From NCBI GenBank assembly GCA_944321715.1, contig CALUMJ010000009.1, positions 1 to 59,178 of the forward strand: DNA of 59,178 nt, given 5' to 3'. This DNA comes from an uncultured Muribaculaceae bacterium (GTDB lineage Bacteria; Bacteroidota; Bacteroidia; Bacteroidales; Muribaculaceae). Positions 54,645 to 59,178 of the stretch are shown one piece after another. How positions within the stretch are numbered: the stretch's first letter is position 1; each line of letters opens with the position of its first letter. The notes beneath the pieces were generated by a model. That model had not been told where the DNA came from, searched no databases, and saw only the letters and a list, made by a program, of their open reading frames with translations. A program made the translations under genes and the position numbers.

Positions 54645-54737
54645 CGGCTCGTTACTGCCACATTTACAGTATATTATGGTCGCCATTGAGCCGCCATATA
54701 CAGCATATAAATGTAATTGCAATTTCGGCATACCTCT
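54645..54737 (+). repeat. Repeat family C, copy 2
   Basis: It shares CGGCTCGTTACTGC(C/T)ACA and AAATGTAATTGCAAT...CGGCA(C/T)ACCTCT with 17967-18042. A palindrome GAGCCGTCAT/ATGGCGGCTC begins just upstream (about 54629). It lies past the stop of the amidohydrolase gene. Confidence 0.5.
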
Positions 54738-55494
54738 ACAATTCACATAAACGTGTCACATTTATATTAGTGATTTTATCGAAAACTTCTGGGGCAAGTC
54801 GTTTCCTCAATGTATTCACATATTTCGCATTAATGCGCGATACAGCCTTGCGGTAATATACCGATTGTATGGGAGTGTCGGTTCCAAATAAAATTCTGTC
54901 TTCAAAACCATCACGCACAAGCTGTAATACATCTTCTACAGGCATGAAAGCAGTATCGCAATAGCTGTTGGGACAACAACGAAGCACTTCCTTGGTTTCA
55001 TCCAACGGTCGTCCGTGGGCAAGTATAAATTTTAAATCGGCGTTTTTTATGCACACGTCCTTAAACAACCCAGCATGACAACTATAGTTTTCTCCTGTGT
55101 GAAACAGTGTAGGAACATCAAGCAAGCGTGCCACTTGCAAGGCCGATTCCTCAAGTTCGGCATTGTCCATCCATTCGTCATGCAATCCCCAATGTTGCTT
55201 CACGCATTTCCATTTCACATTGCTGCCAAGTAACATATTCACAATATCATGCTCTTTTATTGACTGCGGGGTGAGCCATAAAACAGGATATACAGCTATC
55301 CCACATTCTGCACCATCATTCATCATGAGCTGCAATTCCTGCATCGCCATCTCATATCGTTCTATGCAAGTTGTAGTTGATGACACCAATGCACCTGAAA
55401 CGCCTGATTGTTTTAGTATTTGCAACACATCATGAGTGGAGTGGTATCCATTGCTATACCACCCCACATGACAGTGACTGTCTATTATATTCAT
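54736..55494 (-). CDS. Amidohydrolase (COG2159-like TIM-barrel metal hydrolase)
   Basis: A 252-residue cytosolic metal-dependent hydrolase or decarboxylase of the amidohydrolase-2/TatD-like group. Metal ligands are visible as the HxH pair His7/His9 (DSHCHVG), His in PTLFHTGE, His in ILAHGRP and Asp in FGTDTP. It begins 3 bp after the radical SAM gene stop, so it is translated with it. A role in the same peptide-modifying pathway, for example hydrolysing or trimming a modified peptide, is inferred from context only. It is AT-rich relative to the housekeeping genes. Confidence 0.88.
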   Translation of the reverse strand: MNIIDSHCHVGWYSNGYHSTHDVLQILKQSGVSGALVSSTTTCIERYEMAMQELQLMMNDGAECGIAVYPVLWLTPQSIKEHDIVNMLLGSNVKWKCVKQHWGLHDEWMDNAELEESALQVARLLDVPTLFHTGENYSCHAGLFKDVCIKNADLKFILAHGRPLDETKEVLRCCPNSYCDTAFMPVEDVLQLVRDGFEDRILFGTDTPIQSVYYRKAVSRINAKYVNTLRKRLAPEVFDKITNINVTRLCEL

Positions 55495-55497
55495 GCA

Positions 55498-57021
55498 TTA
55501 ATCGGCATTATTCTCAGACTCCCTTTTTAACTTCTCCACAAGCAATCGCTCTCTTCGCTCTAATTCGGGGCCATACTCTTCTTCTACAATTTCTTTTGTG
55601 AGAAATGCTATTTTACAGAAGTGCCGACTCAAAGCAAACATATCGCCACCGCTCTCGTTGAAATTGCGTACAAGGCATCGCGAGCAATAATCACGCGCTT
55701 CACACGACAAGCATTCAGGAAACGACGACTCGGTTATAGAACGCAGGAATTTCACTCTTTCACTGTTGTTCCATATATCACGCAACGATTGCTTATACAC
55801 ATTCCCAAGGATATAACCTTGCCAACCAGCACAAGGGTACACATCTCCGTTAACGGTTATGCAACAATTGTCAAAACCCACGCCACAAACCGGTCTTTTG
55901 CAGAAATTTTTGTCATAAAGCATTTTTTCGGACAACGGTATTTTCGTCAATGTTTTTTCTTTATAATCGATGTCGTTGCACACAATGTCGCGTATGACTC
56001 CACGACACTCTTCCACCGATAATCTATTGGCCAAGTTTGAAGTGTCAAGGTCGGAACGAGCCATCAAAATATAATCGGTTTGGCATTTGACTTTTAATCT
56101 TCTTGCGTATTCAAGCACTTTCACATAACCGTCCTTGTTGGCTTTCATCAACGGGCAAGAAATTTGGATAGGTATATCGGCTGCTACAAGCTTTTCTATT
56201 GCATCTTTTGTTTTTTGCCACGACCCTTTTACGGTGGTTATTGTGTCGTGTATGTCTGGGTTCATGGAGTACAACGATACTTGCACCAACGATACATTGG
56301 CTTCCCGGAGTACAGGAATAAGTGAATCATCCAATGCTATCAAATTAGACAACAATGAAATTTTCAAATCTTTTTTCCTGCAATACCTTATTATTTCGGG
56401 CAAATCCTTGTGTAAAAGCACCTCGCCTCCCGACAAGGACACAGACAAACCTCCCATTTCAGAAAATTCATCGATTAATTCTTTCACCTTTTCCAATGGC
56501 ATGTCCCATCCATGATTTTTCTTGTCGTTGGGTATGTAACAATGTATGCACCGTTCATTGCATCTACTGCTCAATTCAAACTGGAGATTTTGGATTACAG
56601 GAGTTTTCTTCATTTCTTCTTCCATAAAATCCTGAGTGCTGACGAGTGCTGTGTCGCGTAACGACTCCTGAGTGTAATTGTCTGTTGCTGTAAATGGAAT
56701 GGGGTCGTTGTATGAGAAAGACTTGTCCAGTTCGTCCAATTCTTTTTCAGTTTCACCCAACACTATAAACTTTTCGTGTGCGAGGTCGTTAATAAAGTCC
56801 ATGAAGTCGGAGCGAAGCTCTTCCATACTCACACTGTCGCCAAACACTGTCGCCATGTCCTTTATTATATCTTCCACATTGCGAGGTTCACGTGTAATAT
56901 GTTTTAAAAAAATGGCTCCTCCACGATTGTATGTGCGGTCATACCTCGTGGTTTGATTTACGATATAGCCATAATTGGCTGTAACTCTTATAAATGTATT
57001 CTTTGATTGTCGTACAAGCAT
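55498..57021 (-). CDS. Radical SAM/SPASM peptide maturase with PqqD-like N terminus
   Basis: A 507-residue radical SAM enzyme. Residues 1-100 form a winged-helix PqqD/RRE-like region that would bind a leader peptide. The radical SAM core has the Fe-S motif CNERCIHC (Cys154, Cys158, Cys161) and the SAM-binding GGE (198-200). The C-terminal SPASM region has many cysteines (Cys374, 379, 386, 387, 397, 437, 440, 446, 449, 469) that fit two auxiliary 4Fe-4S clusters. RRE-rSAM-SPASM enzymes install thioether, C-C or epimer modifications on RiPP precursors. A precursor-like gene lies 77 bp upstream. Confidence 0.93.
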   Translation of the reverse strand: MLVRQSKNTFIRVTANYGYIVNQTTRYDRTYNRGGAIFLKHITREPRNVEDIIKDMATVFGDSVSMEELRSDFMDFINDLAHEKFIVLGETEKELDELDKSFSYNDPIPFTATDNYTQESLRDTALVSTQDFMEEEMKKTPVIQNLQFELSSRCNERCIHCYIPNDKKNHGWDMPLEKVKELIDEFSEMGGLSVSLSGGEVLLHKDLPEIIRYCRKKDLKISLLSNLIALDDSLIPVLREANVSLVQVSLYSMNPDIHDTITTVKGSWQKTKDAIEKLVAADIPIQISCPLMKANKDGYVKVLEYARRLKVKCQTDYILMARSDLDTSNLANRLSVEECRGVIRDIVCNDIDYKEKTLTKIPLSEKMLYDKNFCKRPVCGVGFDNCCITVNGDVYPCAGWQGYILGNVYKQSLRDIWNNSERVKFLRSITESSFPECLSCEARDYCSRCLVRNFNESGGDMFALSRHFCKIAFLTKEIVEEEYGPELERRERLLVEKLKRESENNAD

Positions 57022-57040: not shown

Positions 57041-57073
57041 AAAAATGCCGACAAAATAGCAATGTCGGCATTT
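57041..57073 (-). terminator. Terminator/attenuator between precursor and maturase
   Basis: A perfect 11-bp stem AAATGCCGACA/TGTCGGCATTT (57043-57053 with 57063-57073) with a 9-nt loop is followed on the minus strand by TTTTTG. It lies 26 nt after the precursor stop and 20 nt before the rSAM start codon. Partial read-through would give much more precursor mRNA than enzyme mRNA. Confidence 0.8.
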
Positions 57074-57098: not shown

Positions 57099-57254
57099 TT
57101 AAGCAGAACGTTCACATTCTTTGCACATTGGTCTATGTCCAAATGCAAGTAAACAGTCACCGGTTTCCCTATTATCTTTCGGTGGGCATCCTGCTGCATA
57201 AGAACCAGAAGAAAGGTTTTTTGCAATCACTTTTGGTTTTTCGTAATTATTCAT
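57099..57254 (-). CDS. Cys-rich RiPP precursor peptide (candidate)
   Basis: A 51-codon gene too short for usual gene callers. The peptide starts MNNYEKPKVIAKNLSSG, then SYAAGCPPK, and ends in a Cys-rich part. It has four cysteines (Cys23, Cys34, Cys44, Cys47; the last two as CKEC). The N-terminal YEKPKV...GSYAAG segment looks like a leader with a small-residue turn before the core. Position directly upstream of a PqqD-rSAM-SPASM gene, followed by an attenuator, is the classic precursor arrangement. The start is ATG at 57254 with a weak AT-rich ribosome site, usual in Bacteroidetes. The modification and final product are unknown. Confidence 0.8.
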   Translation of the reverse strand: MNNYEKPKVIAKNLSSGSYAAGCPPKDNRETGDCLLAFGHRPMCKECERSA

Positions 57255-57320: not shown

Positions 57321-57827
57321 TTACTTTTCGTAGCGTTTCAGCAATGTCATCAGCTCATACACGCAGCGCAAATCGCAATAATACGTTGCACGTTCCCATA
57401 CGAGTGAATTGTTTTTTATCGACTTTTCGATGTTTAATGTGTAAATGCCAATGAACTTATAGCAGTCACTGTCTTTGAAGCGCATGAAAGTGATTCTGAC
57501 AATAGGGTGTTCTATATACCTTTTCACATTTCCACTGCGTTTTTCTTCGATGTATTCGGGAGTTTCGCCTTTAACCCCTGTGTAATATTCTTCATATACA
57601 GTGTAGTCAGGGCTCAGAATATTCGTCCACCCAGTGCTGTCGTCTTCTTTTGGGCAATAAACTTCGATGTCTTTTAATCCAGGAACGGCAACAGAACCTT
57701 TTCTTGGAGCTCTTGCATGAAATATCGCAAAAGCGTCACCGACATTTTTCACGCAGCAATTATTGTCGTTAGCATCCAATATTCCGTTGCTAATGATGCT
57801 TGAAACGTCGTTTGCAGTTTGTTCCAT
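57321..57827 (-). CDS. Protein of unknown function upstream of the RiPP genes
   Basis: A 168-residue soluble protein without a signal peptide. The middle is polar (GSVAVPGLKDIEVYCPKEDDS) and the C-terminal part (VRITFMRFKDSDCYKFIGIYTLNIEKS ... LVWERATYYCDL) has a beta-rich pattern faintly like domains attached to restriction endonucleases. No family is assigned. A TACATTTG promoter box is 72 nt upstream. It is 66 bp upstream of the precursor gene on the same strand and could be co-transcribed, but a role in the peptide pathway is unproven. Confidence 0.6.
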   Translation of the reverse strand: MEQTANDVSSIISNGILDANDNNCCVKNVGDAFAIFHARAPRKGSVAVPGLKDIEVYCPKEDDSTGWTNILSPDYTVYEEYYTGVKGETPEYIEEKRSGNVKRYIEHPIVRITFMRFKDSDCYKFIGIYTLNIEKSIKNNSLVWERATYYCDLRCVYELMTLLKRYEK

Positions 57828-58748: not shown

Positions 58749-58917
58749 GCACTTTTCTTATATAGGTAACCTTGCAAATTAATTAATTTGTGAATTATAA
58801 GTATGGTTTTATTTAGGAATTGTAGGGATGAGCCACAAAATTTCATATAACCAACGGCTTCATTTTGTAGGGGAGGTGGCGAAAAAGCCGTTCTCAGAGA
58901 ATTTTCTTAAATAGAAT

Positions 58918-59178
58918 GCTACGGCTCGGCAAAGCGAAAAAAAAACAGCAAGCTGATTTTTTTGCATTGCGCTCGCCTTGCACTACTTTTGATAAGATAG
59001 GCTACGGCTCGGCAAAGCGAAAAAAACAGCGAGCTGATTTTTTTGCATTGCGCTCGCCTTGCACTACTTTTGATAAGATAGGCTACGGCTCGGCAAAGCG
59101 AAAAAAAACAGCGAGCTGATTTTTTTGCATTGCGCTCGCCTTGCACTACTTTTGATAAGATAGGCTACGGCTCGGCAA
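58918..59178 (+). repeat. Tandem array of promoter-bearing repeat family D
   Basis: Three units of 81-83 bp, beginning GCTACGGCTCGGCAAAGCG at 58918, 59001 and 59082, and the start of a fourth at 59164, cut by the window end. Each unit has an A-run, a CAGC(A/G)AGCTG palindrome, a T-run ending in TTTG, a 19-nt spacer and TACTTTTG, i.e. a full consensus promoter. Differences are mostly in A-run length. Confidence 0.85.

What the first reader, a model, noticed from the sequence alone, without database searches (positions are those of the whole stretch)
57099..57254. Unannotated 4-Cys precursor peptide for a radical SAM RiPP
A 51-residue peptide gene sits just upstream of a PqqD-like/radical SAM/SPASM enzyme gene, with leader-like N terminus (YEKPKV...GSYAAG) and Cys23, Cys34, Cys44, Cys47 in the rest. 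Established knowledge: RRE-rSAM-SPASM enzymes modify such precursors with thioether or carbon cross-links. I do not recognise the core sequence as a named class. Paired with the amidohydrolase it may be a new RiPP family.
Basis: partly seen in the sequence, partly recalled or inferred. Interest (0 to 1): 0.82.

Follow-up and report, generated by a model that had tools for sequence, protein, structure and literature searches.

The report
New cysteine-peptide natural product gene cluster
A gut-type bacterium carries a tiny gene for a cysteine-containing peptide beside enzymes that should modify it, and the same arrangement recurs in related bacteria with a constant front half and a changing back half, which marks a so far unnamed family of modified peptides.

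Summary
The 51-codon ORF (57254-57099, minus strand) is a RiPP precursor gene. All 22 distinct loci with a radical SAM orthologue at 51% identity or more and a readable flank (window included) carry at least one peptide Y..K....AKN...GSYAAGC-[variable]-CxxC. The leader averages 70% identity, the core 22%; leader codons show purifying selection. None of 13 loci with more distant rSAMs has it. The enzyme has a PqqD-like recognition domain and folds nearest to known peptide maturases. An amidohydrolase follows in 19 of 21 testable loci.

New here: five loci carry a second rSAM, and all five precursors have an extra middle Cys. The window's precursor has that Cys (Cys34), but no second rSAM was found in its genome. 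Eleven of 22 loci sit within 3.5 kb of a kinase + HTH gene pair.

Chemistry and function are inferred: most likely Cys thioether cross-links, then amidohydrolase processing. No Pfam or NCBIfam model matches the peptide. A new, unnamed RiPP family with a sister family that reaches proteobacterial plasmids.

The parts
57099..57254 (-). RiPP precursor gene, 51 aa
   Evidence: homologue in 22 of 22 orthologous loci
57189..57254 (-). leader, residues 1-22 (MNNYEKPKVIAKNLSSGSYAAG), conserved recognition segment
   Evidence: 70% mean pairwise identity over 24 precursors (the 22 residues compared there are 2-23); purifying selection
57102..57188 (-). core, residues 23-51, with Cys23, Cys34, Cys44, Cys47
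   Evidence: 22% mean identity after Cys23; Cys23 and Cys47 invariant, Cys44 over 90%
57043..57072 (-). hairpin followed by a T-run between precursor and enzyme; possible attenuator giving more precursor than enzyme
   Evidence: stretch folds at -24 kcal/mol, z -3.57 against dinucleotide shuffles; 20 of 24 precursors are followed by a stretch with z of -2 or lower. The consensus terminator scan did not list it
55498..57021 (-). rSAM1: radical SAM/SPASM maturase, 507 aa
56752..57021 (-). N-terminal PqqD-like RiPP recognition element, about residues 1-90
   Evidence: Pfam PqqD 1.4e-3; strand-helix order of the model
56539..56562 (-). radical SAM motif C154-x3-C158-x2-C161
   Evidence: invariant in 28 aligned rows
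55615..55887 (-). SPASM region, Cys379 to Cys469
   Evidence: PF13186; C379, C397, C437, C440, C446, C449, C469 invariant in 28 rows
54736..55494 (-). amidohydrolase-superfamily enzyme (TIM barrel; HxH, K99/H101, H132, H160, D206)
   Evidence: adjacent in 19 of 21 testable loci
57321..57827 (-). SRA-like ORF, 168 aa, upstream neighbour; probably island cargo, not part of the cassette
   Evidence: PF18491 6.4e-15; PADLOC mREase_II 5.4e-15

Best explanation
This is a RiPP cassette of a so far unnamed family. The precursor's leader (Y4, K6, A11-K12-N13, G17-S-Y-A-A-G22) is bound by the PqqD-like N-terminal domain of rSAM1 (leader conservation shown; binding inferred). rSAM1 then most likely joins cysteines of the core (Cys23 and the C-terminal Cys44-x2-Cys47) by thioether bonds to carbon atoms of other core residues (inferred). 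In some loci a second radical SAM enzyme comes with an extra middle cysteine and probably forms one more ring (co-occurrence shown, role inferred); the window has the cysteine but not the enzyme. The amidohydrolase then most likely hydrolyses a peptide or amide bond of the modified peptide, trimming leader or tail (inferred). A hairpin between precursor and enzyme genes probably raises precursor over enzyme (predicted structure shown, effect inferred). The hypervariable core and patchy occurrence fit a secreted peptide in competition or signalling (inferred). How likely: RiPP precursor plus maturase 0.97; thioether chemistry 0.6; amidohydrolase as maturation enzyme 0.65.
For: Precursor with rSAM1 in 22 of 22 loci, from Muribaculaceae, Bacteroidaceae and Prevotellaceae records and one further family of the order. 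Leader 70%, core 22% mean identity over 24 precursors. dN below dS in all 151 leader pairs (of 276) for which dS was usable, medians 0.20 and 1.32. None of 13 loci with rSAMs at 32-47% identity has this peptide; the 5 of 257 family genomes with the peptide profile are all rSAM1 genomes. Model of rSAM1 pLDDT 90; the ten best solved folds are the entries titled for thioether formation in sactipeptide biosynthesis (5wgg/5why; the name CteB is recalled), SuiB with and without its precursor, TigE and SkfB. SAM and SPASM cysteines invariant in 28 rows. Amidohydrolase in 19 of 21 testable loci, model pLDDT 94; K99, H101, H132, H160, D206 invariant in 18 rows, HxH in the 16 rows that reach it. Middle Cys: 5 of 5 two-rSAM loci, 1 of 16 one-rSAM loci (the window), Fisher p 0.0003. 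Folded stretch after 20 of 24 precursors.
Against: No chemistry was observed. Similarity of the rSAM to solved maturases is remote (14-17% identity, TM-scores 0.46-0.60 by query length in the ten best; none of the 25 NCBIfam models shown reaches its cut-off), and the same enzyme class also makes C-C bonds, epimers and oxidations (recalled). No exporter or C39 peptidase was noticed among the ORFs read, but no dedicated search for one was made. Two-rSAM loci are few and the tree does not exclude a single origin of that arrangement, so p 0.0003 overstates independence. In two of the five, rSAM2 is not a plain full-length ORF: in L047 the open frame lacks the recognition domain, in L052 the gene reads in two frames. 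L012 and L013 have no amidohydrolase nearby, and in L009 and L010 the amidohydrolase ORF lacks the N-terminal HxH. One of the two L010 precursors has an extra Cys after CxxC, L054 and L092 have C-x3-C, and L013 and one L090 precursor have a leader Cys.
Confidence: 0.62

Rival explanations
1. Same RiPP cassette, but the rSAM makes a bond other than a thioether (C-C cross-link, epimer, oxidation), and the cysteines serve as disulfide or metal ligands (Cys23 plus the C-x2-C pair resemble a metal site).
For: Three invariant or nearly invariant cysteines in a C...CxxC arrangement; SuiB, a C-C cross-linking enzyme (recalled), ranks beside 5wgg in the fold search.
Against: Extra Cys and extra rSAM come together (5 of 5 against 1 of 16), which points to Cys as a substrate; besides Pro24 and an acidic residue after the last Cys no core residue is well conserved.
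Confidence: 0.27
2. The amidohydrolase is an immunity or detoxifying enzyme that breaks down the finished peptide rather than a maturation enzyme.
For: It diverges faster than rSAM1 (28-45% against 51-64% identity to the window protein) and does not follow the rSAM1 tree: the window and L047 are neighbours in rSAM1 yet their amidohydrolases are 34% identical.
Against: It lies 3 bp after rSAM1 in the window, a tight gene string, and is absent in L012 and L013, whose precursor tails differ (CYICDYGG); these two are close kin in the rSAM1 tree, so this is one event.
Confidence: 0.25
3. The peptide is the source of a peptide-derived cofactor, like PqqA or MftA.
For: PqqE and mycofactocin maturase models match the rSAM at 7.8e-27 and 1.9e-25, far below their cut-offs.
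Against: The core is hypervariable (22% identity), whereas cofactor precursors keep the residues that become the cofactor (recalled); patchy distribution.
Confidence: 0.03
4. The peptide is a chance ORF.
For: Only its small size and lack of family matches.
Against: 22 of 22 conservation and codon-position bias.
Confidence: 0.01

Closest known systems
Ranthipeptides / SCIFF peptides (CteA with CteB; freyrasin PapA with PapB; names recalled)
   Same: Cys-bearing precursor and rSAM/SPASM enzyme with PqqD-like recognition domain; 5wgg is the top fold hit
   Different: No conserved CxxxD/E motif and no six-Cys-in-45 layout; enzyme far below the PapB cut-off (64.7 against 340 bits); accompanied by an amidohydrolase
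Sactipeptides (subtilosin, SKF, ruminococcin C)
   Same: Cys-bearing core and rSAM/SPASM maturase; ruminococcin C also uses two radical SAM enzymes (PMC8188230, start of abstract seen in a search listing)
   Different: No matching precursor model; AlbA and StsB models far below cut-off; the second rSAM is optional here and tied to one extra Cys
Bottromycin amidohydrolase PurAH/BotAH
   Same: Metal-dependent amidohydrolase acting in RiPP maturation, removing a follower peptide (PMC10885120, passage read)
   Different: Only the superfamily is shared, and no direct comparison was run; the rest of the bottromycin pathway was not seen here
Sister peptides with leader MxYxKP and core CRPNSxPSGRPCNPP or CSKKPCGRPSC
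   Same: Related rSAM (33-42% identity) and a Y-x-K-P leader, peptide upstream of the rSAM
   Different: Different core, nearly invariant in the first group; no amidohydrolase relative found beside them; also on proteobacterial conjugative plasmids

Membership tests
RiPP biosynthetic cassette (general) | short precursor with conserved leader and variable core beside its maturase | tested here: met
RiPP biosynthetic cassette (general) | leader recognition domain in or with the maturase | tested here: met
   PqqD match and modelled fold; below Pfam's cut-off in the window protein, above it in homologues L094 and L055
RiPP biosynthetic cassette (general) | modified product made from the precursor | not testable with these tools
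   needs mass spectrometry
rSAM/SPASM peptide maturases | CX3CX2C and SPASM cysteines | tested here: met
Ranthipeptide (PapB type) | match to the PapB maturase model at its cut-off; CxxxD/E motifs in the core | tested here: not met
   64.7 of 340 bits; motif not conserved
SCIFF type | six cysteines in 45 residues in the precursor | tested here: not met
   3 or 4 core cysteines
Ranthipeptide or sactipeptide (chemical definition) | thioether from Cys to a non-alpha or alpha carbon | not testable with these tools
   no chemistry available
Sactipeptide (AlbA and StsB types) | match to the named maturase models at cut-off | tested here: not met
   86.8 of 850 and 75.7 of 625 bits (which shows 25 of 77 families)
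Amidohydrolase superfamily | TIM barrel with HxH, H, H, D metal ligands | tested here: met

The most novel reading that the evidence does not exclude
The cassette is a modular system in which a second radical SAM enzyme and one extra middle cysteine are gained and lost together, so that ring number is switched by one gene, and in which a dedicated amidohydrolase performs a tailoring step not yet described for radical SAM peptides; its recurrent place beside a kinase + HTH pair, and sometimes beside anti-phage genes, would make the peptide part of a regulated defence or conflict response rather than a plain bacteriocin.
Probability: 0.15. Interest if true: 0.82.

Novelty: new variant of a known kind. 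Interest (0 to 1): 0.6.

Why it matters
It gives a testable, so far unnamed RiPP family in Bacteroidales of gut and rumen samples. The pairing of an rSAM with an amidohydrolase offers a maturation step to test, and the two-rSAM/extra-Cys subfamily offers a natural experiment that could assign one enzyme to one cysteine. The sister family on conjugative plasmids of E. coli and Photobacterium shows that the wider group crosses phyla.

Tried and rejected
Chance ORF: rejected by conservation and codon bias. Phage or plasmid origin: the peptide finds nothing in 50,697 phage records and nothing confirmed in viral contigs (80 stretches matched a pattern, none confirmed); the rSAM finds nothing in phage records at 1e-20 and only 35-36% identical plasmid proteins (7 records). 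A weak peptide hit in G066 (E 0.005) is an unrelated frame, and one in G327 (E 5.6e-4) contains stop codons: both dropped. PADLOC viperin matches of the rSAM reflect the shared radical SAM domain and were not taken further.

General defence-island enrichment is not claimed. The neighbour set (136 of 143 ORFs of 110 aa or more within 5 kb of the cassettes; the 7 from L094 dropped) shows kinase models (PD-T4-6, mad6) in 11 and PD-T4-3 in 3 ORFs at 1e-20. The control set (117 of 121 ORFs: flanks of 12 of the 13 distant rSAM loci plus window 1-49 kb; 4 short window ORFs left out) also holds restriction-modification and other defence genes; its table shows 25 of 63 families, none with more than two members, so a kinase or PD-T4-3 model could match at most one ORF there.

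Papers: 'SYAAGC' inside words gave 0 papers; five strings including 'YAAGCP', 'SGRPC' and 'LAQSTV' gave 5 papers, unrelated by title; six further searches showed no description of this family in their listings; passages of PMC10352776 (a RiPP survey of Bacteroidales centred on GG-motif precursors with PCAT exporters) and PMC10885120 were read, no whole paper. Subscription journals are mostly not held, so absence from print is not shown.

Rows dropped before the 22-locus count: L014 (probably the same as L029; the contig starts inside rSAM1, so the precursor is untestable); L050, L053, L088 and L093, taken as duplicates of L007, L009, L006 and L013 because contig lengths agree; L094 (50% identity, long branch, fused C-terminal domain, no precursor found); L015 (28%, clostridial).

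Full report
The ORF. The 51-codon ORF at 57254-57099 (minus) exists as described, with Cys at 23, 34, 44 and 47. Downstream on the same strand lie a 507-aa radical SAM/SPASM gene (57021-55498) and an amidohydrolase-like gene (55494-54736). Upstream lies a 168-aa SRA-like ORF (57827-57321). The peptide matches no Pfam, NCBIfam, PHROGs or PADLOC model at the limits used.

Conservation. A scan of one genome per species with rSAM1 gave 11 loci, 10 from Bacteroidales records and one remote clostridial one. Whole-genome searches gave rSAM matches in 18 of 397 genomes of the window's family (E up to 1e-60; the family is not named, but contigs of two of its genomes agree in length with Muribaculaceae MAG contigs L007 and L009), 7 of 393 genomes of the order and 10 of 399 genomes of the family of a Prevotellaceae MAG (E up to 1e-110). 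Counting only matches at 51% identity or more, these are 10 (one cut off by its contig), 2 and 9 genomes. After removal of duplicates and the cut-off copy, 22 loci remain, the window included. All 22 carry one or two peptides with the signature Y..K....AKN...GSYAAGC...C..C (alignment of all 24 precursors, where F replaces Y4 in L054 and L092 and single departures occur elsewhere). The peptide usually lies upstream of rSAM1, in some loci with a small ORF or rSAM2 between; in L049 and L090 it lies downstream. L094 (50%) and 13 loci at 32-47% have none. In a profile search of 257 genomes of the window's family, the 5 genomes with the peptide are all rSAM1 genomes. In the order sample 3 of 393 genomes matched, one of them a frame with stops. 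The family is patchy: up to about 2.5% of genomes in these samples.

Leader and core. Over 24 precursors the 22 residues up to the first Cys are 70% identical on average, the rest 22% with gaps counted. In the leader, codon positions 1, 2 and 3 are 76, 87 and 47% identical; dN is below dS in all 151 of 276 pairs for which dS was usable. The core starts at the Cys of AGC, with Pro next in 22 of 24, and ends in a C-x2-C tail followed by E, D or S (C-x3-C in L054 and L092). The Y-x-K-P start of the leader recalls the YxxP motif that recognition domains bind in lasso peptides; that comparison is from memory and was not tested.

Enzyme. rSAM1 keeps CX3CX2C and seven SPASM-region cysteines in 28 aligned rows, which include four distant homologues and two rSAM2 proteins. 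AlphaFold gives pLDDT 90; residues 1-90 show the strand and helix order of a PqqD-like recognition domain (the fold label is my reading). The ten best solved folds are 5wgg/5why (E 7.8e-16; CteB by recall), SuiB with and without its precursor, TigE and SkfB, at 14-17% identity and TM-scores of 0.46-0.60 by query length. By sequence the best solved relatives are SkfB, 5wgg, SuiB and PqqE. None of the 25 NCBIfam models shown (of 77) reaches its cut-off.

Amidohydrolase. It follows in 19 of 21 testable loci; L012 and L013 lack it, and their precursors end in CYICDYGG; L087's contig ends too soon. Its model is a TIM barrel (pLDDT 94) nearest to dihydroorotase, 5-carboxyvanillate decarboxylase and other amidohydrolase-superfamily entries. 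K99, H101, H132, H160 and D206 are invariant in 18 rows (of the 19 proteins; L092's was left out), and HxH is present in the 16 rows that reach it; L009 and L010 start late and may be incomplete. A zinc-dependent amidohydrolase, PurAH/BotAH, removes the follower peptide in bottromycin maturation (PMC10885120, passage read), so a processing role has a precedent.

Second rSAM and the middle cysteine. Five loci (L006, L047, L048, L049, L052) hold a second rSAM at 29-38% identity to the window's rSAM1. All five precursors have a Cys between the AGC and CxxC cysteines. Of the 16 one-rSAM loci in which the stretch from precursor to amidohydrolase (or, in L012 and L013, the flanks) could be read, only the window has it (Fisher p 0.0003; L087 left out). 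The window's rSAM1 groups with that of L047, a two-rSAM locus (support 93/75, not strong), and has a longer end branch (0.63 against 0.21). A search of the window's genome (93% complete) with the rSAM2 of L048 found, besides rSAM1 itself, only remote proteins (best 22% identity, 3e-11), and the window's contig ends 1.9 kb upstream of the precursor. The simplest reading is that the window's lineage lost rSAM2, or that rSAM1 took over. Against over-reading: the tree does not exclude one origin of the two-rSAM arrangement, and rSAM2 is incomplete in L047 and reads in two frames in L052.

Hairpin. Between the precursor's stop and rSAM1 lies a hairpin (57072-57043) followed by T's; the stretch folds with z -3.57. 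The stretch after 20 of 24 precursors folds with z of -2 or lower against mononucleotide shuffles; the four others are one copy each in L010 and L090, L048 and L054. By eye the hairpins share no sequence. This fits attenuation that yields more precursor than enzyme. The simple terminator scan of the window did not list the hairpin.

Neighbourhood. A kinase-like gene together with an HTH gene lies within 3.5 kb of the cassette in the same 11 of 22 loci (not in the window); in 12 distant rSAM loci the kinase occurs in none and the HTH gene in one. In seven genomes searched, matches to the kinase at E up to 1e-10 number 1 to 5 in six genomes and 10 in the window's genome, there all weak (best 5.6e-15), so 11 of 22 is far above chance. 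Order and orientation vary, which looks like a shared island. PD-T4-3 (GIY-YIG) lies directly upstream of the precursor in L006, L011 and L051, PDC-S31 in L008; PDC-S01 lies 1.7 kb past the amidohydrolase in L005, and Septu PtuAB lies next to the cassette in L063. Because control flanks also hold defence genes, a defence role is only a possibility.

Verdict. The gene, the family and the cassette are well supported; the bond chemistry, the amidohydrolase's substrate and the biological role are inference. It is a new family within a known kind of system.

Noticed in passing
L057, L058, L060, L062, L064-L068; L075:4809-4925; L076:4807-4923: Sister precursors (leader M.Y.KP..LA[QK]S or LVKS, core CRPNS.PSGRPCNPP or CSKKPCGRPSC) lie upstream of 33-42% identical rSAMs in 9 of 13 distant Bacteroidales loci and on conjugative plasmids of E. 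coli and Photobacterium beside recombinase genes; the related rSAM is on 7 plasmid records, one of Salmonella. The first core is nearly invariant across phyla. Megablast of the E. coli segment found no match in the complete E. coli genome collection.
   Followed up: partly
11 of 22 orthologue loci, e.g. L009:6479-8430, L089:8888-10771: Kinase-like gene plus HTH gene pair recurs within 3.5 kb of the RiPP cassette, although rare per genome.
   Followed up: partly
L094:5294-7348: rSAM1 homologue (50%) with an extra C-terminal domain of about 200 aa that looked uracil-DNA-glycosylase-like by eye (no Pfam match at 0.01); no precursor of this family nearby.
   Followed up: partly
L055:6558-9215: rSAM1 homologue (45%) fused to a PD-(D/E)XK nuclease-type domain (PF14281 5.3e-14); a 52-aa Cys-bearing ORF with a GGGG stretch lies 192 bp upstream.
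   Followed up: partly
L006:4488-5276, L011:4779-5600, L051:232-951: PD-T4-3-like GIY-YIG anti-phage gene directly upstream of the precursor in three loci.
   Followed up: partly
window 58916-59178: Tandem repeats of about 80 bp (by eye) at the contig end, so the cassette's upstream side is cut off 1.9 kb from the precursor.
   Followed up: no
L090:7241-7605, L010:5657-5976: Two loci carry two precursor copies each with different cores.
   Followed up: no
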